49,427 nt of DNA from a virus. Under the pieces are notes generated by a model. The model ran no database searches. It was not told the origin of the DNA and saw nothing but the letters and a program-made list of their open reading frames with translations. Below, in pieces: positions 2,581-41,979 of the stretch (position 1 is its first letter; each line of letters starts with the position of its first letter). The translations under genes were made by a program, and so were the position numbers. The DNA lies in the IMG/VR virus record IMGVR_UViG_3300031974_005302, positions 1-49,427 of that record. One strand, written 5' to 3'.

Positions 2581-3845
2581 TGTTAAAGAAGGTTTTAATT
2601 AAGGGCCCGGTCCTATCGCGTTCAGGATATGGAGAACAAGCTCGTTTTGCTTTGAGAGCACTGCAATCGAGACAAGATTTATTTGATATTTATATTGTGA
2701 ATATCCCTTGGGGACGAACAGGACAAATTTCCTCTGTAGATGAGGAAGCGGATTTTATTCATCAAACGATTCTTAAAACTCAAATTTATGTACAACAAAG
2801 AGGCCAGTTTGATATCTCACTACAAGTCACAGTTCCTAACGAGTTTGAGAAAATCGCACCTGTAAACATCGGCTACACAGCTGGCATTGAAACAACAAAG
2901 GTATCTCCACAATGGATTGCCAAATCTAATGAAACCGTTGATAGGATCATTGTCGTTTCTGATCATTCAAAGAAGGTATTTGAACAAACAAAATATAATG
3001 TCAAAGATCAGGCCGGGAACGAGCACAAGGGCTGGGGACTTCAAATACCAGTAGATACAGTTAACTATCCTGTTAGAATGTCTGAGCCAGAAAATGTTAG
3101 CATTGAGTTTAGAACTAGTAAGAACTTTCTCGTCGTATCTCAATGGGGTCCAAGAAAAAACTTAGATAATACCATTAAGTGGTTTGTGGAAACATTTGCC
3201 GACGACGAGGATGTAGGTCTGGTAGTGAAGACAAATACTGCGTCAGACTCTGTGTTAGATAGAGAACTCACACAGAAGCGCCTAGAAGCTCTTCTAAACG
3301 CTTGTGGTCCTCGCAAGTGCTCTGTGTACCTAATTCACGGTGAGATGTCTCCTGGGAACCTAGCGTGGCTCTACGAGCACCCTACTATGAAGGCAATGAT
3401 TAACATTGGTCACGGCGAAGGGTACGGACTTCCTTTGTTTGAGGCTGCTTACCACGGATTACCTCTAATCACAACAACTTGGTCTGGACAGATGGATTTT
3501 ATTTGCAAGCCAAATAAGAAAGGCAAGCAAATTCCAAGAGTTATTAAGGTTGATTACGATTTGCTTAATGTTCAAAAAACTGCTGTTTGGGACGGGGTTG
3601 TACAGGCAGATTCTAAATGGGCTTTCCCAAAAGAAAATTCTTTTAAGAGAGGATTAAAAGATCTCCTAGAAAAGGAGCAGTATTGGAAGAGTGAAGCACA
3701 ATCGTTAAAGAATTATGTGCATGATAATTTTACAAAAGATAAATTATATGAGCAATTTTGTAATTCTGTTTTTGAAGGAGAAGTCCTAACAATGCCGGAA
3801 GAGTCAATAGATGATCTTTTTGCAAAGTTAGAAAATAACAGATGA
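2580..3845 (+). CDS. Glycosyltransferase, GT4 family
   Basis: 421 residues from the ATG at 2580, which overlaps the preceding stop (TAATG). A longer frame from 2532 exists, but its extra residues lie inside the upstream gene; the shorter start gives a normal GT-B N-terminus, MLKKVLIKGPV with the loop SRSGYGEQ. The donor-binding E-x7-E is clear at E280 and E288 (EGYGLPLFE), followed by YHGLPLITT. It probably adds one sugar in the same pathway as its upstream neighbour; the two are tandem but clearly diverged. The last four bases overlap the next gene (ATGA). Specificity is unknown. Confidence 0.87.
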   Translation: MLKKVLIKGPVLSRSGYGEQARFALRALQSRQDLFDIYIVNIPWGRTGQISSVDEEADFIHQTILKTQIYVQQRGQFDISLQVTVPNEFEKIAPVNIGYTAGIETTKVSPQWIAKSNETVDRIIVVSDHSKKVFEQTKYNVKDQAGNEHKGWGLQIPVDTVNYPVRMSEPENVSIEFRTSKNFLVVSQWGPRKNLDNTIKWFVETFADDEDVGLVVKTNTASDSVLDRELTQKRLEALLNACGPRKCSVYLIHGEMSPGNLAWLYEHPTMKAMINIGHGEGYGLPLFEAAYHGLPLITTTWSGQMDFICKPNKKGKQIPRVIKVDYDLLNVQKTAVWDGVVQADSKWAFPKENSFKRGLKDLLEKEQYWKSEAQSLKNYVHDNFTKDKLYEQFCNSVFEGEVLTMPEESIDDLFAKLENNR

Positions 3846-5482
3846 TAGTATTTGTCTCTGATCTTTTTAAACAAGATTATCCCGGTGGCGCCGAGCTGAC
3901 AACAGATGCAATATTACAAGACTGTCCATTACCAACTGTCTTGGTTAGGTCTCAGCAACTTAACTCCTCTGTAATATCTAAATACAAGGACTGGTATTGG
4001 ATTTTTGGGAATTTTGCCAACATAAGTCCAGCAAATTTGATTATTATATCAGATAACGTAGATTACTCGGTGATAGAGTACGACTATAAATACTGTAAAT
4101 ACAGATCTTCCGAAAAACATGAAAATATCGAAGGTGCATGCGATTGTAGGCTAAGTCAGCGCGGTAAAGCGGTATCAATATTTTTATCGCGCGCGTCCAA
4201 TGTATGGTTTATGTCTGAGGGGCAACGACAATTTTACTGCAATTTTTATTCATTTCTGGATAAGGATGAAACAAAAGTTTTAAGCTCTGTATTCGATAAA
4301 AAATCACTTGAATATTTTAATTCTGTTGATACAACACAAAAAGAGGACATTTGGCTTATTCAAAAATCTCCTTCTTGGATTAAAGGAACAGAAGATGCGA
4401 TTTCCTATGCTATTGATAATAACCTTAATTATGAAGTGTTTGAGGGTCTAAGTTATCAAGAGATGTTGGATAAATTTTCAAGGTCCAAAGGGTTTATAAC
4501 ATTTCCAAGAGGAAAAGACACTTGCCCTCGAACGGCTATTGAGGCGAAATTATTAGGATGTGAAATCATAAGCAATGAGTTTGTTCAACATCGCGACGAA
4601 GAATGGTTTATAGGTGATAAAAATAGGGCGATCAGTTATTTGAAGGATAGAACCAAAATCTTTTGGAGAGAGACGCTTAATAATTCAAACTTAAATTTAC
4701 CTTTTATAAAAGATAGTTCTTATAAAAATAAAATAAAATTTAAAATAATTGTGCCTGTTTATAACTCTGAAAGTTGGATTGGAAGGTGTATCTCTAGCAT
4801 ACTAAAGCAAGATTATGATAATTTTGAATGCATAGTGACAGACGATATATCAACGGACGATACATATTTTGCTGCCATAAAAGCAGTCAATGGAGATAAA
4901 AGGTTTAATATCATTAAAAATAAAGAAAAGAAGTATGCACTTAAAAATATACATGACGCCATAAATATTGCTAATCCAGAAACGCAAGATGTGGTGGTGA
5001 TATTAGATGGAGATGACTGGCTATCGACAGATTACGTTCTATCTAATCTAGCTCGGTATTATACAGAGGAAAAATGTTGGATGACATATGGTAGCTTTGT
5101 AGAGTACCCAACTGGTCGTGTAGGGGCTGAATCAAGCAATTATCCTTCTCATATTGTAGATAATAATCTATATCGTCAAGATACTTGGCGCGCTTCACAC
5201 CTTAAGACATTTAAGTATTTTTTGTGGAATAAAATTAAAACTAAAGATCTTATGGATGAAGACGGTAAATTTTATGAAATGACCTATGATCAAGCGATGA
5301 TGTTGCCAATGCTAGAGATGTCCGGACCACGAGCCAAATATGTTAGTGAAATAAATTATGTATATAATGTTTCAAACCCCAACGCTGTTAATAAAACAAG
5401 AGCCAGTAAACAACATAGTTTAATGCTTAAGATAAGATCAAAATCATCATACGAGAGATTAACAGATGAAAATTTTGCTTGA
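3842..5482 (+). CDS. Two-domain glycosyltransferase: GT4-like N-terminus fused to GT2
   Basis: 546 residues, nearly twice a normal GT2. Residues 1 to about 290 look like a GT-B-type domain: an N-terminal FVSDLF strand with PGGAE loop and, near residue 235, a stretch (CPRTAIEAKLLGC) like the GT4 donor-binding end. From residue 300 a GT2 (GT-A) domain starts with FKIIVPVYNSE and has DGDDWL at 389-394, the DXD-type metal and nucleotide-sugar site. The fusion could add two sugars in sequence. The gene is notably AT-rich, like those after it. Start and stop both overlap neighbours (4 and 17 bases). GT2 is secure; the N-terminal half is less so and may be degenerate. Confidence 0.78.
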   Translation: MIVFVSDLFKQDYPGGAELTTDAILQDCPLPTVLVRSQQLNSSVISKYKDWYWIFGNFANISPANLIIISDNVDYSVIEYDYKYCKYRSSEKHENIEGACDCRLSQRGKAVSIFLSRASNVWFMSEGQRQFYCNFYSFLDKDETKVLSSVFDKKSLEYFNSVDTTQKEDIWLIQKSPSWIKGTEDAISYAIDNNLNYEVFEGLSYQEMLDKFSRSKGFITFPRGKDTCPRTAIEAKLLGCEIISNEFVQHRDEEWFIGDKNRAISYLKDRTKIFWRETLNNSNLNLPFIKDSSYKNKIKFKIIVPVYNSESWIGRCISSILKQDYDNFECIVTDDISTDDTYFAAIKAVNGDKRFNIIKNKEKKYALKNIHDAINIANPETQDVVVILDGDDWLSTDYVLSNLARYYTEEKCWMTYGSFVEYPTGRVGAESSNYPSHIVDNNLYRQDTWRASHLKTFKYFLWNKIKTKDLMDEDGKFYEMTYDQAMMLPMLEMSGPRAKYVSEINYVYNVSNPNAVNKTRASKQHSLMLKIRSKSSYERLTDENFA

Positions 5483-6359
5483 AAATATCAATCTTAAAAG
5501 TTCAAACGGTCCAAACTCTTTTGCACGAAAATTAACCCCCTATATTATTGGTGCGGGCCATGAATTAGCCGACGTGAAAAACGCAGATGTGTCTTTGTGT
5601 TTCATTGAATCTCCATACAAAGATCTACAAGTGCCTAGGGCCCAAAGATTAGATGGAATATATTATAATACGAGATTTGATTATAAGTCGCAAAATAAGA
5701 ATATACAAAGAACATATAACGAGTCACAAGGCATCATATATCAATCGTACTATGGAAAAGAATTGATTACTAAATTCTTTGGCGATCACCAAAATGGAAC
5801 TGTCATTCATAATGGTGCCGATGTACAAACAATTAATAGTATTGAACCGATGAGGAATGATGTTAAGGACCGTAGAATATGGAGTTGTGCGGCTTCTTGG
5901 CGCCCGCATAAACGACTAAATGAAAATATCAGATATTTTCTAGAACATAAATCTGAGAAGGATATTCTTATCGTAGCAGGGAATGTGATAGCTGCTGAAA
6001 AGCTAGATGACCCGAGCATATTCTACATGGGTAATTTAACACAAAATCAATTATATGCTGTATACAAGGCTTCTGAGTTCTTTCTTCATTTAGGCTATTT
6101 GGATTGTTGTCCAAATGTTGTCGTCGACGCTCGCGCCTGCGGCGCGCAAGTAATCTGCACAACATCTGGTGGCACAAAAGAAGTTGCGGGCCCCAATGCA
6201 ATTCTAATTCCTGAAGAAGAATGGAATTTTAAGCCTATTGATCTCTACAGTCCTCCAAAATTATCTTTCGATACAAAACTTCAAAATTCTTGGGATGTAG
6301 ACTACAATATGGAAGTTATTTCGACTCAATACATAAATTTTTTGGAATCACTAATATGA
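5466..6359 (+). CDS. Glycosyltransferase, GT4-like, short
   Basis: 297 residues, shorter than the usual 350-400. A GT-B layout is visible: N-terminal KILLENINLKSSNGPNSFA loop, an IHNGAD linker after the first Rossmann domain, then a C-terminal donor domain with SCAASWRPHKR and YLDCCPNVVVDARACGA. In this last motif the usual E-x7-E is D-x7-D, a conservative change also seen in some GT4 subgroups. The short length comes mostly from the first domain. It overlaps the previous gene by 17 bases and the next by 4 (ATGA). Likely a glycan-chain transferase; substrate unknown. Confidence 0.75.
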   Translation: MKILLENINLKSSNGPNSFARKLTPYIIGAGHELADVKNADVSLCFIESPYKDLQVPRAQRLDGIYYNTRFDYKSQNKNIQRTYNESQGIIYQSYYGKELITKFFGDHQNGTVIHNGADVQTINSIEPMRNDVKDRRIWSCAASWRPHKRLNENIRYFLEHKSEKDILIVAGNVIAAEKLDDPSIFYMGNLTQNQLYAVYKASEFFLHLGYLDCCPNVVVDARACGAQVICTTSGGTKEVAGPNAILIPEEEWNFKPIDLYSPPKLSFDTKLQNSWDVDYNMEVISTQYINFLESLI

Positions 6360-7651
6360 AAATTAATTATTTTGATCTCGGTCTTTATCGTGGAGTAGAG
6401 CTAGAATGGATTGTGAATCAAATTTTACCTGCTTTGGGGGTGGAAGACTATAAGGCGTATGGCTTTGAAGCTTCTTCGGTATATGCCGAAGGGGTAGCTA
6501 AAAGATATGCTTCTAACCCCAAAGTCAAGATAGAACATGTAGCTATAGCTGATAAAGAATCAATAATGAGACTATATCATTCTCCAAACTTACTTGGTCA
6601 TTCAATTTATTCAACTAAAAATAATGTGATGCTGGATAAATACGAAGATGTTATTAGTACGAGGTTTTCTGAGTGGATCAAGAAAAATAATATTGATTTA
6701 GAAAACAGCTTCAATATCATGAAAGTAAATATTGAGGGTGCCGAGTGGCCTCTGTTTCAAGATATGGTAGCCAATGACTTGATTAAACACATAGATATAT
6801 TCTGTGGAGCCGATGGCGATCACGAAGGTCGTCATGACATAGAAAAAGTTGCTGAGCTTAAACCGATCGCAGAAAAGTATTATTCACTCCTAAAAGAGAA
6901 CAACATTGAAATTCATAGGTTCACAGAGTGGAAACCACAACTAAATAAAGATATTGGACGTTTAATATTCGAGAGATACTCATCTAAAGCATTTAAAGAA
7001 GTGTCTAAAATACCGGAGATAACATCAATACAGGTTCCGAAAAATTATTATAAAATATGGGAAGAAGTATCAAAACCTACTCAACTTAAAAAAGCAAAAA
7101 ATCACAAACTAAGCCAGAGTGAAACAGAATCTGCATTGTCACAATTGGTTGTAAGACCAACTTACTTGTGTAATATAGCCTCAATTTATGGAGCTAAGAA
7201 CATTGCTGAAGTAGGTACCGCGCAAGGGCTTCAAAGTTATACTTTTGCCGAATATCTTAGGAGCAACAATATTGATGGTAAAGTTTGGACCTGTGACATT
7301 GTTAATGCAAGGAATGCCGAATATGAATTAAAATACTCTGATCTTATGGTTTTCTGTGAGGGCAATAGTCAAAAAATGACAGAAACTATTTCCTCAACAA
7401 ATCAAAAAATAGACTTGTTTTACATCGATGGAGCACACGACAAGGGAGACGTTATTAGAGACGTTTTCTATCTTAGGCAAGTTCAATCTGAAAATCCAGT
7501 TTGGATATTTGATGATTATGATGATCGTTTTGGTTGTTATAAAGATATAACTGCAATTATGAAAATTGCAAAGAAATTTAAAGTCTATTCCGTTGGGAAG
7601 ACTGCCAGCGGAAATCCAAATCACCAAGTTGTAGTGTATGGAAAATTATGA
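6356..7651 (+). CDS. Double SAM-dependent methyltransferase (FkbM-like plus Methyltransf_24-like)
   Basis: 431 residues from the ATG at 6356, overlapping the previous stop (ATGA); a longer frame from 6290 lies inside the upstream gene. Residues 1 to about 215 resemble FkbM methyltransferases: FDLGLYRG, YGFEAS, a VKVNIEGAEW segment typical of that family, and IDIFCGADGDHE. Residues about 260-431 form a second class I methyltransferase: IAEVGTAQGLQS (SAM loop), WTCDI, IDLFYIDGAHDKGDV and WIFDDYDD, as in the Methyltransf_24 group. Two methylations of one or two sugars are plausible. This is a tandem fusion of unlike methyltransferase types inside a glycan operon. Substrates are unknown. Confidence 0.78.
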   Translation: MKINYFDLGLYRGVELEWIVNQILPALGVEDYKAYGFEASSVYAEGVAKRYASNPKVKIEHVAIADKESIMRLYHSPNLLGHSIYSTKNNVMLDKYEDVISTRFSEWIKKNNIDLENSFNIMKVNIEGAEWPLFQDMVANDLIKHIDIFCGADGDHEGRHDIEKVAELKPIAEKYYSLLKENNIEIHRFTEWKPQLNKDIGRLIFERYSSKAFKEVSKIPEITSIQVPKNYYKIWEEVSKPTQLKKAKNHKLSQSETESALSQLVVRPTYLCNIASIYGAKNIAEVGTAQGLQSYTFAEYLRSNNIDGKVWTCDIVNARNAEYELKYSDLMVFCEGNSQKMTETISSTNQKIDLFYIDGAHDKGDVIRDVFYLRQVQSENPVWIFDDYDDRFGCYKDITAIMKIAKKFKVYSVGKTASGNPNHQVVVYGKL

Positions 7652-7676
7652 AACAAGATAAAGGTAGAAATTAATT

Positions 7677-8921
7677 ATGTTAAAAAGTTTAAATTTTAAT
7701 TCGTTTGAGTTCAATAGCAGGCAAGAAGCCCTGATAGGGGTCGATACATCTAAAAAATATGTGCTTAAAGTTCAGCTGGTGTTTAACCCACGTAAAAAAA
7801 ACACTATTAAAGAAGAATACGAAGTGATGAGACATCTTAATAAATCAGAATGTGTATCTTGTCCAAAAGCTTATGAATACGGAAAAATTACAAAGACTAA
7901 TTTGCTAGACCTTGTAACTGAGAAAGATCATAGAGAGGCCCTGATAGATGATGAGTATGAGTACATACTGCAGGAATATATCTCTGATAGTGGTCTAATA
8001 AATTTACCAGATATTGTTTTATCAATATTAGAACAAAAAAAACTTGGAGTTTATCAAGCCGATATTAAGCCTGGAAATCTCCGCTTTGATGTCAATACAA
8101 GTGTTTGTTACATTATTGATTATGATCAAGCGATATTACTGACTGATGAGCAAAAGTCCTTTCCAAATAAAACATTCTTTAATTTTTGCTCTCAATATGA
8201 TAAACAAGAACATGGTATTGGAAATTGGCTAAGACATCTGCCGCAATACAGTGAATTGGATTTAGACCAGCTTTTTAGAGATGGTAGTTTTAATCTTGGG
8301 CAGACAACAATTTTAAAGACACAAAGAACCACTAATAGCACAACTGGTATTTATCACACAATAGAAAGCGATGACATCTTTGCCGATGGCTCAAGAAAGG
8401 TAAATGTTCGTGCCGGTATACTGGACACATTACAATTTAAAGAAGGCGAAAAGGTATTAGATATAGGATGTAATACAGGATTGCTATGTCAGTATCTTGC
8501 AGCCAGGGGTTGCGAAGTATCTGGCGTTGATAACGATACTAGAGTAGTTATAGTTGCTAAAATTATTTCTAATATATTAGGAAATAATATAGACTACTAC
8601 CATTTAGATTTGGACGATGCTGAGGCCATAAAAGAGTGTGACACAATCATGCTGTTTTCGGTGTTACATCATACTCATAAAGTTAAGGAAAATGCCAAGA
8701 AGATCGCCCAAGCATGCAATAGGATTATTATAGAAGCTAGACTTTTTGAGAATGGAGCACAGCCTTATGGGGATGAGTGGGTACGCACCTCGTCTTGGAA
8801 CTTTAATGACTGGGAGGAGTTTTATACCTTCTGCGAGACGATCTTCCCTGGCTTTAAGTTAAAAAATAATCTAGGATTAGGGTCTAAAAATCGCAACATC
8901 CTTGAGTTGGTAAAAGAATGA
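7677..8921 (+). CDS. Kinase-methyltransferase fusion, possible glycan-capping enzyme
   Basis: 414 residues. The N-terminal part (1 to about 170) has a protein-kinase-like core: K31 in YVLKVQ, a Glu helix near 46-48, the catalytic loop D129-I-K131-P-G-N134 (QADIKPGN) and metal-binding D148 in IIDYDQ. Residues about 235-410 are a class I SAM methyltransferase: VLDIGCNTGLL from about residue 259, then VSGVDND and LFSVLHHTHK. Kinase-methyltransferase fusions in glycan loci recall E. coli WbdD, which phosphorylates and methylates the O-antigen end to stop chain growth, but WbdD has the methyltransferase first. Chain capping here is inference. AAAGG precedes the start. The ATGA overlap couples it to the next gene. 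Confidence 0.8.
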   Translation: MLKSLNFNSFEFNSRQEALIGVDTSKKYVLKVQLVFNPRKKNTIKEEYEVMRHLNKSECVSCPKAYEYGKITKTNLLDLVTEKDHREALIDDEYEYILQEYISDSGLINLPDIVLSILEQKKLGVYQADIKPGNLRFDVNTSVCYIIDYDQAILLTDEQKSFPNKTFFNFCSQYDKQEHGIGNWLRHLPQYSELDLDQLFRDGSFNLGQTTILKTQRTTNSTTGIYHTIESDDIFADGSRKVNVRAGILDTLQFKEGEKVLDIGCNTGLLCQYLAARGCEVSGVDNDTRVVIVAKIISNILGNNIDYYHLDLDDAEAIKECDTIMLFSVLHHTHKVKENAKKIAQACNRIIIEARLFENGAQPYGDEWVRTSSWNFNDWEEFYTFCETIFPGFKLKNNLGLGSKNRNILELVKE

Positions 8922-9541
8922 TTATTCGAGATCACGCGATTAAGAAAATCTGCTGGAGGCTAACTGCCAGTCATGGTGTTTCGCTTGGTAAAATGACAGC
9001 GCTAGATTTTTTTGCAAGAGAGGGCGATTGGCAAACGCAATATATTGCTGAACGTGTAAATAAAATGTATGCCTGGGAAGTAAATGAGGAGTTTGAACCA
9101 AACTTAAGATTAAATCTCCCTGATAACTCGGTGATTCAAATGGGTGACTCCCATATATTAGCCCTGAAGCTAGACACGCCCCGGATATTTGATATGGTTA
9201 TTTATGATAATCCACAAGGTTGTTATGGCAAAGACAATGAATATTGTGAGCATTTCGACGCACTTCCACTGTTGCCTCTCCTTCTTAAGGAAGAAGGTGG
9301 TGTAGTTATTCTAAATGTTAAAGCGCAACCATTCAACTATGAGGATAAGCTTGACTGGCAGTGCCGGCGCAACACTTTTTACGCAATAGATGACACCTCA
9401 AATGTGCCCCTAGATTTTCTCCAGCACCATTACCAAGCTTACTTTGAATCTTTGGGTTATGGTACGGAGTTTTCGTTTATGATTGTGCGCCCACAAGAGA
9501 CCGGCCTCTATTCATTAGTCTCCAAGCTCATTAGGATTTAG
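8918..9541 (+). CDS. Class I SAM-dependent methyltransferase-like protein
   Basis: 207 residues. A Rossmann methyltransferase pattern is visible: ALDFFAREGDWQ in the place of the SAM-binding loop, MYAWEVNEE at the second strand with its acidic end, VIQMGDSH at the third, and DMVIYDNPQG at the fourth, where a D/N-PP-type motif would sit. The loop is atypical (no GxGxG), so activity on a nucleic acid, lipid or sugar cannot be told apart. It starts inside the previous stop and is followed after three bases by a glycosyltransferase. It and the next gene look richer in G+C than the AT-rich genes before them, suggesting a different origin. Confidence 0.65.
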   Translation: MIIRDHAIKKICWRLTASHGVSLGKMTALDFFAREGDWQTQYIAERVNKMYAWEVNEEFEPNLRLNLPDNSVIQMGDSHILALKLDTPRIFDMVIYDNPQGCYGKDNEYCEHFDALPLLPLLLKEEGGVVILNVKAQPFNYEDKLDWQCRRNTFYAIDDTSNVPLDFLQHHYQAYFESLGYGTEFSFMIVRPQETGLYSLVSKLIRI

Positions 9542-9544
9542 TTT

Positions 9545-10681
9545 ATGCTTATTAAAGATATCACCAATGGTTTTCCCACCACCAAAAGGGCGGCTATGTT
9601 TTACAAAACAGAGCCTTTTTATGTAGATGTCGCTCGGTATACCCACACTAATAACTGGGAAATTTTAGAAGCTATCAAGATACTCAATCAAAAGGGATTT
9701 GCGGTCGACTTGATAGATAGGAACAACGGTGGTTGGAAGGGCGGTTATGATTACGATTTGTTTTTAGGTCTCGGCGTTGGGGGCTCTGGCCAGGCTTTCC
9801 CCAAACACGCGAAGACATCACGGGCCCCAGTGAGAATTTTGTTGTCTATGGGCCCCCAGCCTGATGAATCAGCTCGGCTTGTACTTGAGCGATATAAGTT
9901 ATTCAACGATCGAACTGGGCGCAATGTCCCAACAATGCGGGCGCCCACCAATGTTTGCGGTGACGTTTGGCTAGAAATTATGAAATCTACAGATTATATC
10001 TTTAATATTGGGGAAGAAAATAATCAAAGCTCCAAAAGCTTTTTGCCATACGGAAAGCCTATTATTAATTTTTATCCTTCTAGTTCCCCTAAAGTACAAT
10101 TTCATGAGCCTTGGCTCAACACACGTCAACCTGATACATTTCTTTGTTTTGCGGGGAATGGATTTATTTGTAAAGGAGTAGATCTAGTAGTGGAGGCGTT
10201 TCTGCGCGATCCGCAGAAAAAACTTCACATTTGCGGGCCTAATAGTGAACGAGGTTTTTTTGATCATTATGGGCCTCTTATCCATAATGCTCCCAATATA
10301 GAATATCATGGCTTTATAGAGCCCGGTGGACCAGTGTTTAATGATCTAGCATCGCGCTGCTCCTATGTGGTTTTCCATTCAGCTGCTGAGGGGTGTTGCA
10401 CCTCGGTAGCAACCGCCATGCGCGCCGGCCTTGTCCCGATAGTTAACGATTGGACTGGCATTAATATTACCAACGAGGGGATTAACCTTAGTGAGGAGGG
10501 TGACTTAATTCAAAACATCACCGCCGCGCTGACCAGAGCAGTCACGGTTTCCCAAAATCAGTATCGAGTAATGGTGCGCAATACATTAGAAAAAGCAGCT
10601 AAATTTTCTCAAGAATCTTTTACTGAAAGTTATACCGAAGCTATTTCAAAAGTTATAGCCAATGAGAAGTCGTTACAATAA
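9545..10681 (+). CDS. Glycosyltransferase, GT4-like, variant motif
   Basis: 378 residues, normal length for GT-B enzymes. The C-terminal domain is recognisable: FAGNGFICKGVDLVVEAF, LHICGP, then FHSAAEGCCTSVATAMRAGLVPIV. In the usual E-x7-E position the first Glu is present (AEG) but the second is replaced by Thr (SVAT), so this is a variant subgroup or has altered catalysis. The N-terminal domain contains the Gly-rich segment LGLGVGGSGQ. G+C looks higher than in surrounding glycan genes. It lies three bases after the methyltransferase gene and ends 23 bases before a small unrelated gene that has its own strong ribosome binding site. Confidence 0.72.
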   Translation: MLIKDITNGFPTTKRAAMFYKTEPFYVDVARYTHTNNWEILEAIKILNQKGFAVDLIDRNNGGWKGGYDYDLFLGLGVGGSGQAFPKHAKTSRAPVRILLSMGPQPDESARLVLERYKLFNDRTGRNVPTMRAPTNVCGDVWLEIMKSTDYIFNIGEENNQSSKSFLPYGKPIINFYPSSSPKVQFHEPWLNTRQPDTFLCFAGNGFICKGVDLVVEAFLRDPQKKLHICGPNSERGFFDHYGPLIHNAPNIEYHGFIEPGGPVFNDLASRCSYVVFHSAAEGCCTSVATAMRAGLVPIVNDWTGINITNEGINLSEEGDLIQNITAALTRAVTVSQNQYRVMVRNTLEKAAKFSQESFTESYTEAISKVIANEKSLQ

Positions 10682-10691
10682 TTAATCACAC

Positions 10692-10697
10692 AAGGAG
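10692..10697 (+). promoter_or_regulatory. Strong Shine-Dalgarno (AAGGAG) of the 104-residue gene
   Basis: AAGGAG lies seven bases ahead of the ATG at 10705. Most glycan genes around it depend on stop-start overlap and lack so good a site, so this small gene is probably translated independently and strongly. Confidence 0.6.
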
Positions 10698-10704
10698 AAT
10701 AAAA

Positions 10705-11019
10705 ATGGGCGATATTACTAATACAACACCAGACGCGTCTGGAAATGTGGTTCGAACAATTTGCGAAGTACACAGAGAAGTGTATCGGGAACTTTACAAC
10801 TGTTTCCACAATAACGGTGGTGTGATGACAGAGGACAGTTTTGAATTTCTTAAAACTCACATGGAAGAAGCCTTTGAGTATGCTAAAAAAATGAATAATA
10901 AATTAAGACAGTACAAGTACAATTATGATGTGGGATGGTGGGAAACACATCGCCTAGATGGGGGAGAAATTGATGAACTAGTAAAAATTCAGAGTGTCAT
11001 TAAGAAAGATAAAAGTTAA
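10705..11019 (+). CDS. Small protein of unknown function inside the glycan block
   Basis: 104 residues, not recognised. It is mostly helical by appearance, charged, with no membrane segment or signal peptide; a conserved-looking aromatic stretch YNYDVGWWETHRLDGGEID lies near residues 74-92. It is unlike any glycosyltransferase or sugar enzyme. It has its own AAGGAG site while its stop overlaps the next start (TAATG), so it is both well expressed and coupled to the glycosyltransferase that follows. It could be a regulator, a partner of a glycan enzyme, or a phage early-type protein captured in the block. Real coding is supported by spacing and signal, function is not. Confidence 0.65.
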   Translation: MGDITNTTPDASGNVVRTICEVHREVYRELYNCFHNNGGVMTEDSFEFLKTHMEEAFEYAKKMNNKLRQYKYNYDVGWWETHRLDGGEIDELVKIQSVIKKDKS

Positions 11020-11996
11020 TGAAAATTGTTTTTAATAGTGGTCATCGACATGCGGCCGCAACTGTTTTTTATCAAGATGCATTTGCTGATATGCCTGGAA
11101 TAAGCTTGCATGACGATGATTTTGCTAGTGCTGATGTAGCGCTCTTTATGACATATGATCATAAATGGATTAAGGGTACCAAACAAAAGTTTCCACATCT
11201 CAAAATAGGTCTAATAGACCCTCGAACACCGGCAATAATGCAAGACATATCCTATTGCGATTTCTTAGTGGTTGATAGTATAGAGATGGAAGATTACTGG
11301 AGAGTAGCAAAAAAACCAATAGCTCGTTATGTAGAATATCCAAAACTAAACTTAAATGAGCAAACAAAAAATCTTATAAGTTCTATTCAGTCAACGAGAG
11401 ATAAAAATACCATATATATCGGATATCATGGTAATTCTTATCACATTATGGAAGGAGATAAGACTCTTCTTCCCGCTATTGAAGAGCTTGGTAAAAAATA
11501 TAACATAGAGTTATTACTTATGCACAACTCGCCGGCCCACCCCGAGCGCTATAATAGAGCAATGCCAAATGGAATAAAAATTCATCGCGCGCCTTGGAGT
11601 ATGGAAAATTATATTAAATTTTTGTCCTTATCGCAGATTGGATTAGTGCCCAATAACCTTGGAGCAACGCCTAAAGAACCTGGAACCACGGGGGATCCTA
11701 ACACAGATTATTGCTTAAGTTTTAAGATGACCTCCAATCCTGGCAGGTTTGCAGTTTTTGGATTACTAGGAATTCCTGTTGTAGCAGACTTTTATCCCTC
11801 GTCTCTACAATACTTGCAAAATGGCTGTGGTTTTGTAGCACATTCAAAAGATGGGTGGTATCATTCACTAGAGACTTTGATACAGTCAAAAAAAAAGCGA
11901 GAGGAAATGGGAAATAATCTACAGAAGCTAGTAAATAGAGAGTTTGATTTTACTGTACAAAATAAAAATTTTCTGCTATTCTTGGAACAGATATAG
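11019..11996 (+). CDS. Probable glycosyltransferase, GT-B fold
   Basis: 325 residues. It begins with a short strand MKIVFNSGHRHAA and shows a GT-B-like two-domain plan: IYIGYHGNSYHI opening the second domain, IELLLMHNS, IKIHRAPWSMENYIKFLSLSQIGLVPNN, then GRFAVFGLLGIPVVADFYPS near the C-terminus, where GT4 enzymes bind the donor. The canonical E-x7-E is absent; the segment has a Phe/Gly pattern of distant family members. The ATG overlaps the stop of the 104-residue gene. It probably belongs to the same glycan pathway. Family placement is moderate, donor unknown. Confidence 0.62.
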   Translation: MKIVFNSGHRHAAATVFYQDAFADMPGISLHDDDFASADVALFMTYDHKWIKGTKQKFPHLKIGLIDPRTPAIMQDISYCDFLVVDSIEMEDYWRVAKKPIARYVEYPKLNLNEQTKNLISSIQSTRDKNTIYIGYHGNSYHIMEGDKTLLPAIEELGKKYNIELLLMHNSPAHPERYNRAMPNGIKIHRAPWSMENYIKFLSLSQIGLVPNNLGATPKEPGTTGDPNTDYCLSFKMTSNPGRFAVFGLLGIPVVADFYPSSLQYLQNGCGFVAHSKDGWYHSLETLIQSKKKREEMGNNLQKLVNREFDFTVQNKNFLLFLEQI

Positions 11997-12017
11997 TGTT
12001 GTAAATAAGGATCTTTC

Positions 12018-12854
12018 ATGAAAAATAAAAAAGTTTTGGTCACTGGTGCTACTGGATTTTTAGGTAAATCTTTGGTAAGCAATTTATTAAATTGTGGAGC
12101 AGATGTTATTGGGACCGGATACTCTGAGTCGAATATAAAGAAGTTTGAAAGAACATTTGGCAACAAAGTAAAAATTTACTCTGTCGATATAGCTTCTAAT
12201 TACGTTGCCTTAAAAAACATCCTTTTACAGGAAAAGGTTGACTATGTTATCCACGCGGCAGCATTAAAACACGTAGGTATATGTCAAGATAATCCTACTA
12301 GAGCTATAGACGTTAATATAAATGGATCCAAAAATGTTGCTCAAGCTTGTGTGGAAGCAAACGTCACAAATGCTATAGCGGTTAGTACCGACAAAGCTAT
12401 CAATCCCGTATGCACATACGGTATAACTAAAAAGTTGATGGAAGCAATATTCTACGAATATAACTTTGGTATTTTCCAGGGAGTAAATTTCTTGTTTTCA
12501 TCTGAAAGTGTGTTGGATGTTTGGGACCAGATAAGACAGAATAATAAACCCATTCTTGTAAATACGGAGGCAGTTAGGTATTTTTGCACGGTGCAGCAAG
12601 TTTGTGATGCAATATTGAAAAATATAAACACCAAGAGGCAAGTATTTTCGGTTGATCATAGTTATAAAATATCGATTGTGGATCTGCAGGAAGCGTATTC
12701 TACTTGTCACAATTACTGGAATGTTGATAAGTATACTCCTTTAGATATAGAGAAAGTGGAAGAAGAGCTTCCATTTGATCACATTGGTGTTACCACGCCT
12801 AGTCGTGATCAAATCATACAAATGTTTCACGATCACTACAACACAGAAGTATGA
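12018..12854 (+). CDS. NAD(P)-dependent sugar dehydratase/epimerase, FlaA1/CapD (Polysacc_synt_2) type
   Basis: 278 residues. Rossmann loop VTGATGFLGKSL lies at residues 8-19, followed by HAAALKHVGICQDNP, VSTDKAINP and the catalytic-type YGITK (Y-x3-K). The AAALKHV and STDKA.NP signatures mark the FlaA1/PseB/CapD group, which make 4-keto-6-deoxy UDP-HexNAc. The usual length is 320-350; the region after YxxxK is shortened, with RYFCTV still matching the family's RFF(M)T segment. No aminotransferase of the DegT/PseC type, which normally acts next, is seen. The gene follows a 21-base gap with a TGTAAATA octamer at 12000-12007, and overlaps the next gene (ATGA). Confidence 0.82.
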   Translation: MKNKKVLVTGATGFLGKSLVSNLLNCGADVIGTGYSESNIKKFERTFGNKVKIYSVDIASNYVALKNILLQEKVDYVIHAAALKHVGICQDNPTRAIDVNINGSKNVAQACVEANVTNAIAVSTDKAINPVCTYGITKKLMEAIFYEYNFGIFQGVNFLFSSESVLDVWDQIRQNNKPILVNTEAVRYFCTVQQVCDAILKNINTKRQVFSVDHSYKISIVDLQEAYSTCHNYWNVDKYTPLDIEKVEEELPFDHIGVTTPSRDQIIQMFHDHYNTEV

Positions 12855-13480
12855 AAGTTTTAGCAATTGCAGGTCATGCTGATGACGTGGAACTGGGACT
12901 TGGTGGTACCCTAGCACGTCACTCTGATAATGGCGATGATGTTACGGTTGTTTTAGTGACCCATAGCGGTTATTCTAATTATGACGGTCGTATTATCCGT
13001 ACTAGCGAGGTGGCTAGCGCCGAGGCCGTCGAGGCCGCTGATATACTTGGCATTGATAAGCTTATAATATGGGATTACGAAACAAAAGAAGTAGAGTATA
13101 ATGTGAAACTTATAGAAGATTTAAATCGCTTAGTCGATCAGATACAACCAGATGTAGTTTACACACATTGGGTAGAAGACGCAAATCAAGATCATTCTGC
13201 CATATCAAAAGCAACTTTAATAGCAGCTAGAAACATTCCTCGTATTTTAATGTATCAGAGTAATTGGCATAGCTCGGAGAGCACCTTTAGGGGAAGATTC
13301 TACGTCGACATCACAGATTATATTCAAAAAAAGACTAGAGCAATCCAAGCCCATAAATCAGAGGTAGGTAAGCGCGGCAGTTCTTGGGTTGAATTTTTTA
13401 CAAATAAAAACAGAAATGACGGAATTGCAATTGGTGTTGGATATGCGGAATGCTTTGAGATTATTAAATGGCTAAGGTAG
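12851..13480 (+). CDS. PIG-L/LmbE-family deacetylase
   Basis: 209 residues. The family signature appears at the N-terminus: AIAGHADDVELGLGGTLARH, equivalent to the zinc-binding AHPDDxxxGxGG motif, with Ala replacing Pro. The second zinc site region is THWVEDANQDHSAISKA (matching HxxDxHxDH). These enzymes remove N-acetyl groups from GlcNAc-type sugars or related small molecules. In this block it probably deacetylates an amino sugar, next to a UDP-HexNAc-type dehydratase and a WbqC-like protein. Start and neighbours: ATGA overlap upstream, seven bases to the next gene. Family assignment is firm; substrate is inferred from context. Confidence 0.88.
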   Translation: MKVLAIAGHADDVELGLGGTLARHSDNGDDVTVVLVTHSGYSNYDGRIIRTSEVASAEAVEAADILGIDKLIIWDYETKEVEYNVKLIEDLNRLVDQIQPDVVYTHWVEDANQDHSAISKATLIAARNIPRILMYQSNWHSSESTFRGRFYVDITDYIQKKTRAIQAHKSEVGKRGSSWVEFFTNKNRNDGIAIGVGYAECFEIIKWLR

Positions 13481-13487
13481 ACTAAAT

Positions 13488-14084
13488 ATGAGGGTTACGA
13501 TACATCAACCGGAACATTTTCCTTATATGGGATTTTTTCAAAAGATGAAAGCAGCCGATCTTTTTATTGTTTTAGACAACGTAAAGTATAGAAAGAATTA
13601 TTTTCAAAACAGAAATAAGTTTCCCAACGCACAGGGGCGAGATGAGTGGTTCACGATCCCGGTGAATAAGCGATCAAACAACTCTTTGATAAAAGACGTG
13701 CACACAGTGCCAGACAATGGCTGGCGTAAAAAACTTCTAAAACAAATGAAATTTAATTTTGGCTATGACCTAGAAAGAGTTTATGAACCAGACAAACTTA
13801 TTGACATCAACATGTTAAGTATTAAATTTTGTCGTGAAAAATTAGGAATTAGAGTGCCAATGGAGTTTGCCTCAAATTTAGTTAACGACTTGAGCAGCTC
13901 AGAGTTGTTAGTAAATCTTTGTAAAAGCGTTAATGCTTCTACATACATCTCGGGTCCTTCTGGGAGAGATTATTTGAATGTAAGTTTATTTGAAGAGGAA
14001 AACATTGGGGTTGAATTTTTTGATCCACATGTGAAGAACTATTATTCTGCTTTATATAATATAACCAAGGAGATAGAGTTATGA
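13488..14084 (+). CDS. WbqC-like family protein
   Basis: 198 residues. The opening MRVTIHQPEHFPYMGFF followed by DLFIVLDNVKYRKNYFQNRN and the WFTIPV segment are the hallmarks of the WbqC family (PF08889), found in O-antigen and other surface glycan loci, often near sugar aminotransferase and deacetylase genes. Biochemical function of the family is poorly settled; acylation or amino-acid attachment to a sugar has been suggested from context. Here it sits directly after the PIG-L deacetylase, which would expose a free amino group, so a joint deacetylate-then-acylate step is a reasonable inference. The stop overlaps the epimerase start (ATGA). Confidence 0.87.
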   Translation: MRVTIHQPEHFPYMGFFQKMKAADLFIVLDNVKYRKNYFQNRNKFPNAQGRDEWFTIPVNKRSNNSLIKDVHTVPDNGWRKKLLKQMKFNFGYDLERVYEPDKLIDINMLSIKFCREKLGIRVPMEFASNLVNDLSSSELLVNLCKSVNASTYISGPSGRDYLNVSLFEEENIGVEFFDPHVKNYYSALYNITKEIEL

Positions 14085-14977
14085 AGTGTTTAGTAACCGG
14101 TGGAGCCGGTTTTGTTGGTAGTAATTTAGTTGATGAGTTGATTAGAAGAGGTCATGAAGTTGTTATTATTGATAATCTTTCAACCGGTAAGCGAGAAAAT
14201 ATTAATCCGGATGCTAAATTCTACGAGGTAGATATAGAAAGTTCCGATGCTGCTGTTGCCTTTCCGGGTGTTGAAGCAGTATTTCATACTGCGGCCAAAG
14301 CTAGGGTACAGCCATCAATTGAGGACCCCCTCAGTTACAACAAAACCAACGTAGAAGGTACTTTGAACATGCTTAAAATGGCTGTGGACCATGGAGTGAG
14401 AAGGTTTATTTATAGTGCTTCGTCTTCTGCTTATGGCAATACGGATAAGTTGCCCCAACAGGAAACGGATCCTACCAGCCCTCTTAGTCCGTATGGTGTG
14501 CAGAAATTAGTAGGCGAATTATATTGCACCATGTTTGCTCATGTATACGATATCGAAACAGTTAGTTTACGTTACTTTAACATTTACGGTGAAAGACAAT
14601 CTCTAGAGGGCGCCTATTGTTTGGTCATGGGTATATTTGCTAGACAGAGGTTACAGGGCGTGCCTTTAACAATCAACGGTGATGGCAAACAGTCGCGCGA
14701 TTTCACATATGTTGGCGATGTAGTAAAAGCAAACATACTGGCTGCTACATCTCCAAATGTTGGTAATGGAGAGGTCATAAATATTGGTAATGGAAATAAT
14801 AGATCAGTGAACCAAATAGCCGATATGATAGGGGGGGAGAGAATTCACGGCCCAGCCGTAGTAGAACCTAACTCCACTTTGGCTGATAATTCTAAGGCAA
14901 GGGAGCTTTTAGGATGGAAGCCAACGATGATTATAGAAGACTGGGTAAAGGAGTATAAGAAAGAATTAGGGATATAA
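14081..14977 (+). CDS. NAD-dependent epimerase, UDP-hexose 4-epimerase (GalE/WbpP)-like
   Basis: 298 residues, extended short-chain dehydrogenase type. It has GGAGFVGSNL for NAD binding, VIIDNLSTGKREN, HTAAKARVQPSIEDP, the S-S-S segment YSASSSAYG, SPYGVQK with catalytic Tyr and Lys, and RYFNIYGERQ. These match GalE-like and WbpP-like epimerases, which convert UDP-Glc/UDP-Gal or their N-acetyl forms. The length is slightly below the 310-340 norm. The reaction is likely 4-epimerisation; dehydratase activity is less likely because no T-[DE]-E active-site triad is seen. The gene is coupled to WbqC-like upstream and leads within two bases to GDP-fucose synthase. Confidence 0.83.
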   Translation: MKCLVTGGAGFVGSNLVDELIRRGHEVVIIDNLSTGKRENINPDAKFYEVDIESSDAAVAFPGVEAVFHTAAKARVQPSIEDPLSYNKTNVEGTLNMLKMAVDHGVRRFIYSASSSAYGNTDKLPQQETDPTSPLSPYGVQKLVGELYCTMFAHVYDIETVSLRYFNIYGERQSLEGAYCLVMGIFARQRLQGVPLTINGDGKQSRDFTYVGDVVKANILAATSPNVGNGEVINIGNGNNRSVNQIADMIGGERIHGPAVVEPNSTLADNSKARELLGWKPTMIIEDWVKEYKKELGI

Positions 14978-14979
14978 TT

Positions 14980-15915
14980 TTGTACTTGTACGTTGTAACA
15001 GGGGGGTCAGGGATGGTAGGCTCTGCCTTCAAAAATATTATACCACAAGCTGAGTATCCTGACCGGCGTCGATTGTGGAACGAGATGTCTAGAGCGGCGT
15101 CCAATAATGCTGAGTTCTTTACTGGTAAAAATGTTATTCATTTAGCAGCAAAAGTTGGAGGAGTAAAAGCAAATACAGACGAGATAGTCGACTTTTATAT
15201 GATCAATTCTACTCTAAATCAGACTCTTTTAAATACTTGTTCTTTAGCCAAGGCTAATAAGGTTGTTTCTTTACTATCAACGTGTATATACCCCGATGCA
15301 CCTTATGTTTCTTATCCCTTGACGGAGGATCAGCTACACCTTGGCCCCCCTCACGAGTCTAACTTTGGTTACGCATATGCAAAAAGAATGGTCGACGTAA
15401 TGTCTCGGGCCTACCGACAACAGTATGGGTGCAACTTTATTACAGCCATTCCTAATAATCTTTATGGTGAAAACGACAATTTTGATCTAGAGAATAGCCA
15501 TGTTATTCCGGCAATCATAAGAAAAGTTTGGGAAGCAAAGATAAACAAGGAGCCTTCTATTGTCTGTTGGGGCGATGGCTCACCTCTTCGTGAATTTACA
15601 TACTCAAAGGATATTGCTCGTATTCTTATATTTTTGATGGAAAATTATGATGGACCAGAGCCAATAAACATCGGTTGCACAGAAGAATATTCTATTAAAG
15701 AAATCGTAGAAATAATTTGTAATATTTTTGAGTATACGGGGAAAATTGTATGGGACACCAATATGCCTTCGGGACAACACCGTAAACCATCCTCTAACCA
15801 AAAGCTGCTAAATTTAGGGTGGGAAAAGAAATGGTACACGCCTCTTGAAGAGGGCTTAAAAACCACTTGTGAATGGTTTAAAGTAAATTATCCAAACGTT
15901 AGGGGTGTTTCTTGA
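14980..15915 (+). CDS. fcl: GDP-L-fucose synthase (GDP-4-keto-6-deoxymannose epimerase/reductase)
   Basis: 311 residues, close to the family norm of about 320. It has GGSGMVGSAF at the NADP site, HLAAKVGGVKAN (a strong family marker), STCIYPD containing the catalytic Cys region, FGYAYAKR with Y-x3-K, and IPNNLYGENDNFD. It converts GDP-4-keto-6-deoxy-D-mannose to GDP-L-fucose with NADPH. The best start is TTG at 14980, two bases after the previous stop; a second TTG lies at 14986. The next gene encodes the enzyme for the preceding step, so the pair makes GDP-fucose from GDP-mannose. Confidence 0.92.
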   Translation: MYLYVVTGGSGMVGSAFKNIIPQAEYPDRRRLWNEMSRAASNNAEFFTGKNVIHLAAKVGGVKANTDEIVDFYMINSTLNQTLLNTCSLAKANKVVSLLSTCIYPDAPYVSYPLTEDQLHLGPPHESNFGYAYAKRMVDVMSRAYRQQYGCNFITAIPNNLYGENDNFDLENSHVIPAIIRKVWEAKINKEPSIVCWGDGSPLREFTYSKDIARILIFLMENYDGPEPINIGCTEEYSIKEIVEIICNIFEYTGKIVWDTNMPSGQHRKPSSNQKLLNLGWEKKWYTPLEEGLKTTCEWFKVNYPNVRGVS

Positions 15916-16892
15916 AAACAGCGATAATAACAGGTGTTACAGGGCAAGATGGGTCCTACCTAGCAGAACTGCTTTTGTCTAAAGGCTATAAAGTAGTGGG
16001 GCTAAAGAGAAGAACATCTTTAATAAATACCGATAGGGTAGATACAATTTACAACAATCCTAATTTTATTCTTGAATATTGGGACCTGAATGATGTCGGT
16101 TCTATGTATAGACTTATTCTTCAATATAAGCCAAATGAGATTTATAATCTTGCTGCTCAATCACATGTTAGGGTATCGTTCGATATACCCGAACACACTG
16201 TCGACGGAGTGGCACTAGGATCCTTAAGAATTTTAGAGGCAATAAGAAATATTGATAATAATATAAGATTCTATCAAGCCTCATCCTCGGAGATGTTTGG
16301 AGACGCCCAATGTCCTAAAACCGGTTATACTGAAAAAAGTCGAATGACGCCGGCTTCGCCATATGCTTGTGCAAAACTTTTTTCTCATAATTTAGTTAGA
16401 AATTACAGAAAATCTTATAATCTACATGCATCAAGTGGAATTTTGTTTAATCACGAATCTCCTCGCCGTGGTGAAACATTTGTAACTAGGAAGATAACAA
16501 TGGCAGCAGCTCGCATCAAATTAGGTCTACAGGAAGAACTACATTTAGGTAATTTACAAGCTAAAAGAGATTGGGGTTATGCTGGTGATTATGTGGAAGC
16601 GATGTGGGCAATGTTACAACAAAACAAAGCCGATGATTACGTTATTTCCACTGGTGAGACGCATACGGTTCAAGAGTTTCTGGAAGAGGTTTTTGACCAT
16701 GCAAAATTGTCTATTAACAAGCATGTCAAAATTAAAGAAAAATATTTTAGGCCCCACGAAGTGCCTTTGTTGTTGGGTAATAGTGAAAAAGCTAAGAAAT
16801 TATTAAAATGGGAACCTAAAGTTAAATTTAAAGATTTAGCAAAATTAATGTATGATGAAGATCTCAAATATGTTAAATCTATTGTCAAATAA
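15912..16892 (+). CDS. gmd: GDP-mannose 4,6-dehydratase
   Basis: 326 residues; E. coli Gmd has about 370, so it is a compact version. The signature features are clear: GVTGQDGSYLAELLL at the NADP site, VGLKRRTS, NLAAQSHVRVSFD, YQASSSEMFG with the catalytic S-S-E, SPYACAK with Y-x3-K, LFNHESPRRGE, and RDWGYAGDYVEAMW. It turns GDP-D-mannose into GDP-4-keto-6-deoxy-D-mannose. Start is TTG at 15912 overlapping the fcl stop by four bases (TTGA). No ManB or ManC is seen in the window, so GDP-mannose would come from the host or from elsewhere in the phage genome. It is the last glycan gene. Confidence 0.95.
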   Translation: MKTAIITGVTGQDGSYLAELLLSKGYKVVGLKRRTSLINTDRVDTIYNNPNFILEYWDLNDVGSMYRLILQYKPNEIYNLAAQSHVRVSFDIPEHTVDGVALGSLRILEAIRNIDNNIRFYQASSSEMFGDAQCPKTGYTEKSRMTPASPYACAKLFSHNLVRNYRKSYNLHASSGILFNHESPRRGETFVTRKITMAAARIKLGLQEELHLGNLQAKRDWGYAGDYVEAMWAMLQQNKADDYVISTGETHTVQEFLEEVFDHAKLSINKHVKIKEKYFRPHEVPLLLGNSEKAKKLLKWEPKVKFKDLAKLMYDEDLKYVKSIVK

Positions 16893-38175: not shown

Positions 38176-39152
38176 GTTTTTTCGACAAAAAAGAAGAAGT
38201 TCTAGAGTTTAAATTAACTGAGTATGGAAAAAGAAAGCTGCAGCTTGGTAGGCTGAAGCCAGCTTTTTATGCTTTCTTTGACGACGATGTTTTATATAAC
38301 ACAGAAGCTGCTGGGTTTTCTGAAGATCAGAATGATGCTGATAGAAGAATTCGCTTTGATACGCCAACTCTTAAAGTTCAAAAAAGTACCACTGGGGCAG
38401 AGACAAGAGTTAATCAGTTTTTGGACGCAATCTCAAGCTCGCTACAAGAGACAGACAGCACAGGCCAATATGTTATTTCTGAAAATTCTGTTGAGTTTGT
38501 AAACGCTTTCCAAGATACGCCGCAGTTTGCACAAAAGTTTTTCTTAGGATCCGACCCGCTTGGAACCAGCGACCTTAAGACACAGTACGCCCCAGCATGG
38601 CACATTAACGCTCTAGAAGGCGAGGTATCATCAAGTCAGTATTATCAGACCGTTAATCTTACAGCCAGCAACACTGGACTAGCAGACGGAATTGTTAGAA
38701 ACATTCCTCAGATTGATGTTACAGTGGACTACAAATCTTTTTATTCATCAGACGATGAGTTAGATGACTTTACTGGTGAAGAGGCAGAAAAAATCATTCG
38801 GCTAACACAAGATAATGTTGCTGGTGTTGCTTTGTACTTACAGGAAAATTATTTAGTTTTGGATGTCGTTGAAAGAAATACAAGCAACTTAAAAGAAAAC
38901 TTTGAAATAGAGGTATACTTGTCTGGCTCTGATGGCACTTATGCGCAGAAAACATTCCTAACAACGCAGAATCTAGGCGAAGTTTTAGATGATCAAAAAG
39001 TTGAATTCTTTACAAATATTCTTGTTGATTCTGAGATGCCTGAAGAAGTTATAACAAGGTTAAACATTCAGGAAAGCACCCTTAAGGGAACAATTGCTAG
39101 AACACAGCTTTCAAGAAACCTATATACTTCTGATAACGAGGAGCCTTGCTAA
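38172..39152 (+). CDS. Virion structural protein with shared 'LTxxGKRKL' N-terminal domain
   Basis: 326 residues. The first 80 residues (EVLEFKLTEYGKRKLQLGRLKPAFYAFFDDDVLY) resemble the start of the protein at 46025 (DIILDAVLTDTGRMRLAKGDGTFRISKFALGDDEIDY): both show L-T-x-x-G-[KR]-x-[KR]-L, a short G-containing turn, and an F/A-x-x-D-D pattern followed by a Tyr, then a TP/SP-x-L segment. The rest is beta-rich with acidic loops (YSSDDELDDFTGEEA). It likely is a baseplate, collar or fibre-joining protein. The ATG overlaps the giant gene's stop (ATGA). Confidence 0.68.
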   Translation: MSFFDKKEEVLEFKLTEYGKRKLQLGRLKPAFYAFFDDDVLYNTEAAGFSEDQNDADRRIRFDTPTLKVQKSTTGAETRVNQFLDAISSSLQETDSTGQYVISENSVEFVNAFQDTPQFAQKFFLGSDPLGTSDLKTQYAPAWHINALEGEVSSSQYYQTVNLTASNTGLADGIVRNIPQIDVTVDYKSFYSSDDELDDFTGEEAEKIIRLTQDNVAGVALYLQENYLVLDVVERNTSNLKENFEIEVYLSGSDGTYAQKTFLTTQNLGEVLDDQKVEFFTNILVDSEMPEEVITRLNIQESTLKGTIARTQLSRNLYTSDNEEPC

Positions 39153-41977: not shown

Positions 41978-41979
41978 TA

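What the first reader, a model, noticed from the sequence alone, without database searches (positions are those of the whole stretch)
7677..8921. Kinase-methyltransferase fusion resembling a reversed WbdD chain terminator
A full kinase core (K31, D129/K131/N134, D148) is followed by a class I methyltransferase. E. coli WbdD uses methyltransferase then kinase to cap O-antigen and fix its length. A phage-coded protein with the opposite order could cap host or virion glycan. If so, the phage may shorten or seal host O-antigen chains, or set the length of its own glycan.
Basis: partly seen in the sequence, partly recalled or inferred. Interest (0 to 1): 0.7.

Follow-up and report, generated by a model that had tools for sequence, protein, structure and literature searches.

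The report
Phage kinase–methyltransferase for glycan capping
A virus of bacteria carries a two-part enzyme that probably adds a phosphate to a sugar chain and then caps that phosphate with a methyl group; its relatives in bacteria are fused to sugar-attaching enzymes beside flagellum genes, so it most likely decorates sugars on proteins rather than trimming the host's O-antigen.

Summary
CDS 7677-8921 (414 aa) is a kinase (about residues 1-205) followed by a class I methyltransferase (206-414). An alignment-based AlphaFold model is confident (pLDDT 90, pTM 0.90). The fusion is a real, rare family: 7 distinct phage versions (10 records with the window) and 7 bacterial ones. None was found in 50,697 isolate-phage records. 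The methyltransferase aligns with E. coli WbdD. All four residues whose mutation abolishes WbdD's phosphate methylation (Y16, H132, H133, R203) have invariant counterparts (Y226, H331, H332, R406); none of 16 informative control methyltransferases had the double histidine. The kinase core matches WbdD and CK2. So 'phosphorylate a sugar, then methylate the phosphate', with WbdD's domain order reversed, is well supported as chemistry. The O-antigen reading is not: no coiled-coil ruler, no ABC exporter in ten records. Four of seven bacterial relatives lie inside flagellar loci, and six of seven are fused to further domains, mostly glycosyltransferases (GT41, GT2, capsule-type). In phages the gene sits in a conserved glycosyltransferase block within a hypervariable island near baseplate genes. 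Best explanation: methyl-phosphate decoration of a cytoplasmically made glycan, most likely on virion protein. New variant of a known kind.

The parts
7677..8921 (+). Kinase-methyltransferase fusion, 414 aa (stop codon included)
7677..8291 (+). Kinase domain, residues 1-205: K31 (beta3), E47 (alphaC), D129/K131/N134 catalytic loop, D148 in D-Y-D-Q replacing DFG; short C-lobe
8292..8918 (+). Class I methyltransferase domain, residues 206-414, with WbdD-like phosphate-methylation tetrad Y226, H331, H332, R406
3842..5482 (+). Two-domain glycosyltransferase (unassigned N-terminal half plus GT2); co-conserved upstream gene
5466..6359 (+). Group 1 glycosyltransferase; co-conserved
6356..7651 (+). 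FkbM-like plus Methyltransf_24 double methyltransferase; the C-terminal half is conserved in all eight related loci tested
8918..9541 (+). 207-aa protein without a family match (methyltransferase-like by eye), co-conserved in 5 of 8 loci tested
9545..10681 (+). Group 1 glycosyltransferase, co-conserved (52-59%)
11019..11996 (+). 325-aa protein, no family match, co-conserved (37-51%)
12018..16892 (+). Sugar-precursor genes: epimerase/dehydratase, PIG-L deacetylase, WbqC, two NAD-dependent epimerases, GDP-mannose 4,6-dehydratase
3842..16892 (+). Hypervariable glycan island between conserved GT (2586-3845) and conserved phage genes from 17525 onward; replaced wholly or partly in close relatives

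Best explanation
The protein is a bifunctional glycan-decorating enzyme. The N-terminal kinase transfers phosphate from ATP to a hydroxyl of a sugar in a short glycan being built in the cytoplasm. The C-terminal methyltransferase then methylates that phosphate with SAM, leaving a capped methyl phosphodiester. In bacteria the same module is physically coupled to glycosyltransferases in flagellar loci and most likely finishes flagellin-linked glycans. In the phage it belongs to a conserved cassette of glycosyltransferases and methyltransferases and most likely caps a glycan attached to a virion protein (tail, baseplate or capsid). Shown here: the family, domain order, active-site conservation, gene context and close structural match of the methyltransferase to WbdD. 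Inferred: the phosphate as methyl acceptor, kinase before methylation, protein-linked glycan, and virion target.
For: Full-length family with invariant catalytic residues. AF2 model pLDDT 90.2, pTM 0.90. WbdD structures are among the top methyltransferase matches (Z 16.1-16.3, rmsd 2.7, 22% identity, model 206-414 to WbdD 4-211), although tied in Z with unrelated methyltransferases. hhalign: methyltransferase vs WbdD P 96.9, E 1.8e-10; kinase vs WbdD kinase P 77.6, E 1.9e-5; swapped pairings give nothing. WbdD Y16F, H132A, H133A and R203A lose methylation but keep phosphorylation, and H132/H133/R203 have no equivalent in the hydroxyl-methylating O8 enzyme (PMC3482155); their counterparts Y226, H331, H332, R406 are invariant. 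All 16 control Methyltransf_23 proteins covering the His-His site have E-H or I-H; only WbdD has H-H. Fusions to GT41, GT2 and Capsule_synth (G490 by eye). Flagellar context: Thiorhodococcus drewsii flg genes through flgK-flgL, then TPR genes and the fusion; L074 FlgK/FlgL/FliW; L076 flagellin; L077 FliD. Conserved phage cassette.
Against: No activity is shown. The kinase acceptor cannot be read from sequence. The H-H pair also occurs in some non-phosphate methyltransferases (NodS/RebM have two His or two Tyr, PMC3482155). R406=R203 rests on the end of the structural alignment being gapless, not on inspected coordinates. L076 and the G490 copy lack the kinase Asn. The virion target is inferred only by analogy and from closeness to structural genes. 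Three bacterial homologues (L078, L079, G490) show no flagellar genes in the fetched flanks.
Confidence: 0.5

Rival explanations
1. Chain terminator of host O-antigen or capsule: the phage shortens or seals host surface polysaccharide chains during infection.
For: WbdD-like residues; sugar-nucleotide genes of O-antigen type, including WbqC and Gmd.
Against: No coiled-coil ruler in the chain; no ABC exporter in ten phage fragments; the gene travels with its own glycosyltransferase set; bacterial relatives lie in flagellar loci.
Confidence: 0.12
2. Two independent tailoring steps fused for convenience: the kinase phosphorylates one position and the methyltransferase methylates a different sugar hydroxyl or amine.
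For: The island has further methyltransferase genes, so methylated sugars are expected; the methyltransferase fold is generic.
Against: The phosphate-methylation tetrad is invariant and H-H was absent from controls.
Confidence: 0.18
3. Tailoring of phage DNA or of a nucleotide-sugar precursor rather than of a protein-linked glycan.
For: Several T4-like phages glycosylate DNA (own knowledge); the window is myovirus-like.
Against: Bacterial relatives are in flagellar loci and glycosyltransferase proteins; no DNA-base hydroxymethylase was recognised in the island.
Confidence: 0.1
4. Protein kinase plus protein methyltransferase acting on host regulatory proteins.
For: The kinase profile matches CK2-alpha best in the PDB.
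Against: The CK2 match covers only the generic core; the context is glycan throughout; the C-lobe is too short for a typical protein kinase.
Confidence: 0.05

Closest known systems
WbdD of E. coli O9a / K. pneumoniae O3 (PDB 4AZS, 4AX8)
   Same: Kinase and class I methyltransferase in one chain; same catalytic kinase core; same four residues needed for phosphate methylation; methyltransferase aligned over its whole length
   Different: Order reversed; no C-terminal coiled-coil ruler or polymerase-recruiting tail; no ABC exporter seen; about 22% identity in the methyltransferase and only core similarity in the kinase
K. pneumoniae O7 ORF6 terminator (PMC11231755)
   Same: Methyltransferase and kinase in one protein that also carries GT2 modules, making a methyl-phosphate end; our relative L077 likewise embeds the module among GT2 domains
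   Different: O7 order is methyltransferase-kinase-CBM-coiled coil-GT2-GT2, with an AmiN-like kinase and O-antigen as target
GT41 (OGT-like) proteins with TPR repeats
   Same: L074 and the G490 protein fuse the kinase-methyltransferase module to TPR and GT41, on opposite ends (L074; G490 protein read by eye)
   Different: The phage protein has no glycosyltransferase domain of its own; the glycosyltransferases are neighbouring genes
C. difficile type A flagellin modification (PMC4441256)
   Same: A phosphate-containing, methylated modification on a flagellin glycan
   Different: The methyl group is on threonine, joined to GlcNAc by phosphate; homology to those genes was not tested here

Membership tests
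WbdD O-antigen chain terminators | Kinase and methyltransferase in one polypeptide | tested here: met
WbdD O-antigen chain terminators | Domain order methyltransferase then kinase | tested here: not met
   kinase 1-205, methyltransferase 206-414
WbdD O-antigen chain terminators | Phosphate-methylation residues Y16, H132, H133, R203 | tested here: met
   Y226, H331, H332 by profile alignment; R406 by the end of the structural alignment, 414 opposite 211; all invariant; mutant data from PMC3482155
WbdD O-antigen chain terminators | Kinase catalytic residues D351, R353, N356, D369 | tested here: met
   D129, K131, N134, D148 aligned
WbdD O-antigen chain terminators | C-terminal coiled-coil ruler | tested here: not met
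   chain ends in the last strand of the methyltransferase domain
WbdD O-antigen chain terminators | Partner ABC exporter with CBM | tested here: inconclusive
   no ABC2_membrane match and no ABC_tran match over cut-off in ten phage records, all fragments
WbdD O-antigen chain terminators | Phosphorylation of terminal sugar and methylation of that phosphate | not testable with these tools
   needs biochemistry
APH phosphotransferases (PF01636) | Match above the curated cut-off | tested here: inconclusive
   23.3 vs 23.2 bits on residues 1-188, below cut-off on the full protein; 8 of 13 members match at E<=0.1, best 1.3e-7
Methyltransf_23 (PF13489) | Match above the curated cut-off | tested here: met
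   43.8 vs 27 bits

The most novel reading that the evidence does not exclude
A previously undescribed family of kinase-methyltransferase modules puts methyl-phosphate caps on protein-linked glycans made in the cytoplasm: on flagellin in scattered bacteria and on virion proteins in myoviruses known only from metagenomes. Methyl-phosphate capping, known from O-antigen termination, would then be a general protein-glycan decoration shared by phages and bacteria.
Probability: 0.35. Interest if true: 0.7.

Novelty: new variant of a known kind. Interest (0 to 1): 0.55.

Why it matters
It extends methyl-phosphate capping, known from a few O-antigen terminators, to a separate family with the opposite domain order. 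It links that chemistry to flagellar glycosylation loci and to phage glycan islands. It makes a definite, cheap prediction: a methyl-phosphate mass (+94 Da) on flagellin glycans of Thiorhodococcus drewsii and on virion proteins of the phages. A phage capping its own virion glycan would bear on adsorption and on how phage surface variation is generated, since the island is exchanged as a block between close relatives.

Tried and rejected
Single-sequence AF2 gave an unusable model (pLDDT 34). Searching viral and genome contigs with the full single protein found nothing; the kinase core alone, then alignments, found the family. Isolate phages and plasmids gave only generic methyltransferase hits. 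Baseplate relatives of the window were searched for the fusion and gave no match (records are fragments). Class and phylum scans showed the family is rare (1 of 369, 2 of 385, 1 of 392 genomes, each count including the starting genome). The Foldseek and VIA-align rows shown are filled by methyltransferases, so the kinase was not fold-tested on its own; absence of kinase chains there is not evidence. Paper searches for flagellin with methylphosphate or phosphomethyl gave no relevant paper.

Full report
What is there. The window is one 49,427-base virus record. Its right part carries T4-like baseplate and tail genes: baseplate wedge (PHROG 219, E=6.6e-26) and baseplate-hub-like, with wedge relatives in Flavobacterium and Microcystis phages. 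CDS 7677-8921 encodes 414 aa.

Kinase half. Single-sequence Pfam evidence is weak: APH at the curated cut-off on residues 1-188, Pkinase E=1.1e-3. With the family profile the kinase core matches human CK2-alpha over residues 22-160 at E=3.4e-6, aligning the beta3 Lys, alphaC Glu, catalytic Asp-x-Lys-x-x-Asn and metal-binding Asp. K31, E47, D129 and D148 are invariant in 13/13, and K131 and N134 nearly so. The metal-binding motif is D-Y-D-Q, all four invariant. In the model the strand and helix order of residues 7-146 is that of a kinase N-lobe, hinge and catalytic loop, with a short C-lobe up to about residue 205. I could not fold or search the kinase alone, so its fold class beyond 'protein-kinase-like' is untested.

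Methyltransferase half. Methyltransf_23 E=3e-11. The AF2 model from 13 sequences has pLDDT 90.2 and pTM 0.90. Against solved structures WbdD ranks second and third by Z (16.3 and 16.2, rmsd 2.7, 180 aligned, 22% identity), spanning model 206-414 and WbdD 4-211; many other methyltransferases score within 1 Z, so the Z value alone is not diagnostic. Profile comparison: P 96.9, E 1.8e-10 for the methyltransferases; P 77.6, E 1.9e-5 for the kinases; crossed pairs give no signal.

Residue-level test. In WbdD, Y16F, H132A, H133A and R203A keep phosphorylation but abolish methylation, and H132, H133 and R203 have no equivalent in the O8 enzyme that methylates sugar hydroxyls (PMC3482155). The hhalign alignment pairs Y16 with Y226, R31 with R240, R36 with R245, D82 with D285, and H132/H133 with H331/H332. 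The structural alignment ends with 211 opposite 414, which places R203 opposite R406 if gapless. All these residues of ours are invariant in the family. The WbdD letters used as yardstick were recalled and then checked against the PDB chain sequence. As a control I aligned Methyltransf_23 proteins from 15 genomes to the family profile: all 16 that cover the His-His site have Glu-His or Ile-His, and only WbdD has His-His. The controls are biased toward best Pfam matches, and two His or two Tyr do occur in NodS/RebM (PMC3482155), so this is strong but not conclusive.

Family and distribution. It was not found in INPHARED isolates or PLSDB plasmids. In the tree the phage and bacterial versions form separate groups, support 98/99.

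Bacterial context. L074: FlgK, FlgL and FliW precede a TPR-GT41-kinase-methyltransferase protein. T. drewsii: a flagellar gene run through FlgK and FlgL, then large TPR proteins and a kinase-methyltransferase-Capsule_synth protein. L076: flagellin, mannose-1-P guanylyltransferase and Gmd, a stand-alone kinase-methyltransferase, a Kdo transferase, then further flagellar genes. L077: a 2,539-aa protein with four GT2 matches around the module, next to FliD and export genes. L079: kinase-methyltransferase-Capsule_synth followed by PseB-, PseC- and PseG-like genes and WbqC. L078: module behind an unassigned GT-like region, with an FkbM-like neighbour. G490: kinase-methyltransferase-TPR-GT41, without flagellar genes nearby. 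Flagellar and GT assignments are Pfam-supported where listed, otherwise by eye.

Phage context. The block glycosyltransferase (3842), glycosyltransferase (5466), methyltransferase (6356), fusion (7677), 207-aa protein (8918), glycosyltransferase (9545), 325-aa protein (11019) recurs in the same order in other phages, usually complete, at 33-59% identity, with variable sugar-precursor genes downstream. Close relatives of the window, sharing flanking genes at 76-97%, carry different glycan genes at the same position and show no fusion. So the cassette appears to be exchanged as a block near tail genes.

Mechanism. Most likely the enzyme phosphorylates a sugar and then methylates that phosphate. 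Physical fusion to GT41, GT2 and capsule-type transferases in flagellar loci argues for cytoplasmic, protein-linked glycans. The phage counterpart probably finishes a virion glycan. The virion step is inference.

Comparison. It works like WbdD and like the K. pneumoniae O7 ORF6 terminator (PMC11231755), but it is not a WbdD family member: order and coiled-coil features were tested and not met. Score: new variant of a known kind, interest 0.55.

Noticed in passing
window 3842-16892; L046, L048, L050: Close relatives carry different glycan sets in the same island: by eye, L050 has KdsA- and KdsB-like genes (Kdo synthesis) and L046 a NeuB-like synthase and cytidylyltransferase-like gene, so these phages may make their own Kdo or nonulosonic acid.
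   Followed up: partly
window 8918-9541: 207-aa protein with no Pfam, PHROG or NCBIfam match, conserved next to the fusion; the sequence (ALDFFAREGDWQT..., DNPQGCYG) looks like another Rossmann methyltransferase.
   Followed up: no
window 11019-11996: 325-aa protein with no credible family match, conserved in seven of eight related islands (37-51%).
   Followed up: no
window 21120-25913, 29704-38175 and 39146-44730: Very large ORFs (1,597, 2,823, 943 and 916 aa) without any Pfam match, in the tail/baseplate region.
   Followed up: no
L075 385-8379 and L079 121-4905: Giant TPR-type proteins (2,239, 418 and 1,595 aa) beside the fusion in both Chromatiaceae; possibly flagellin glycosyltransferases.
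   Followed up: no
window 13488-14084; L079 14638-15360: WbqC-family protein present both in the phage islands and in the Chromatiaceae locus that carries the fusion.
   Followed up: no
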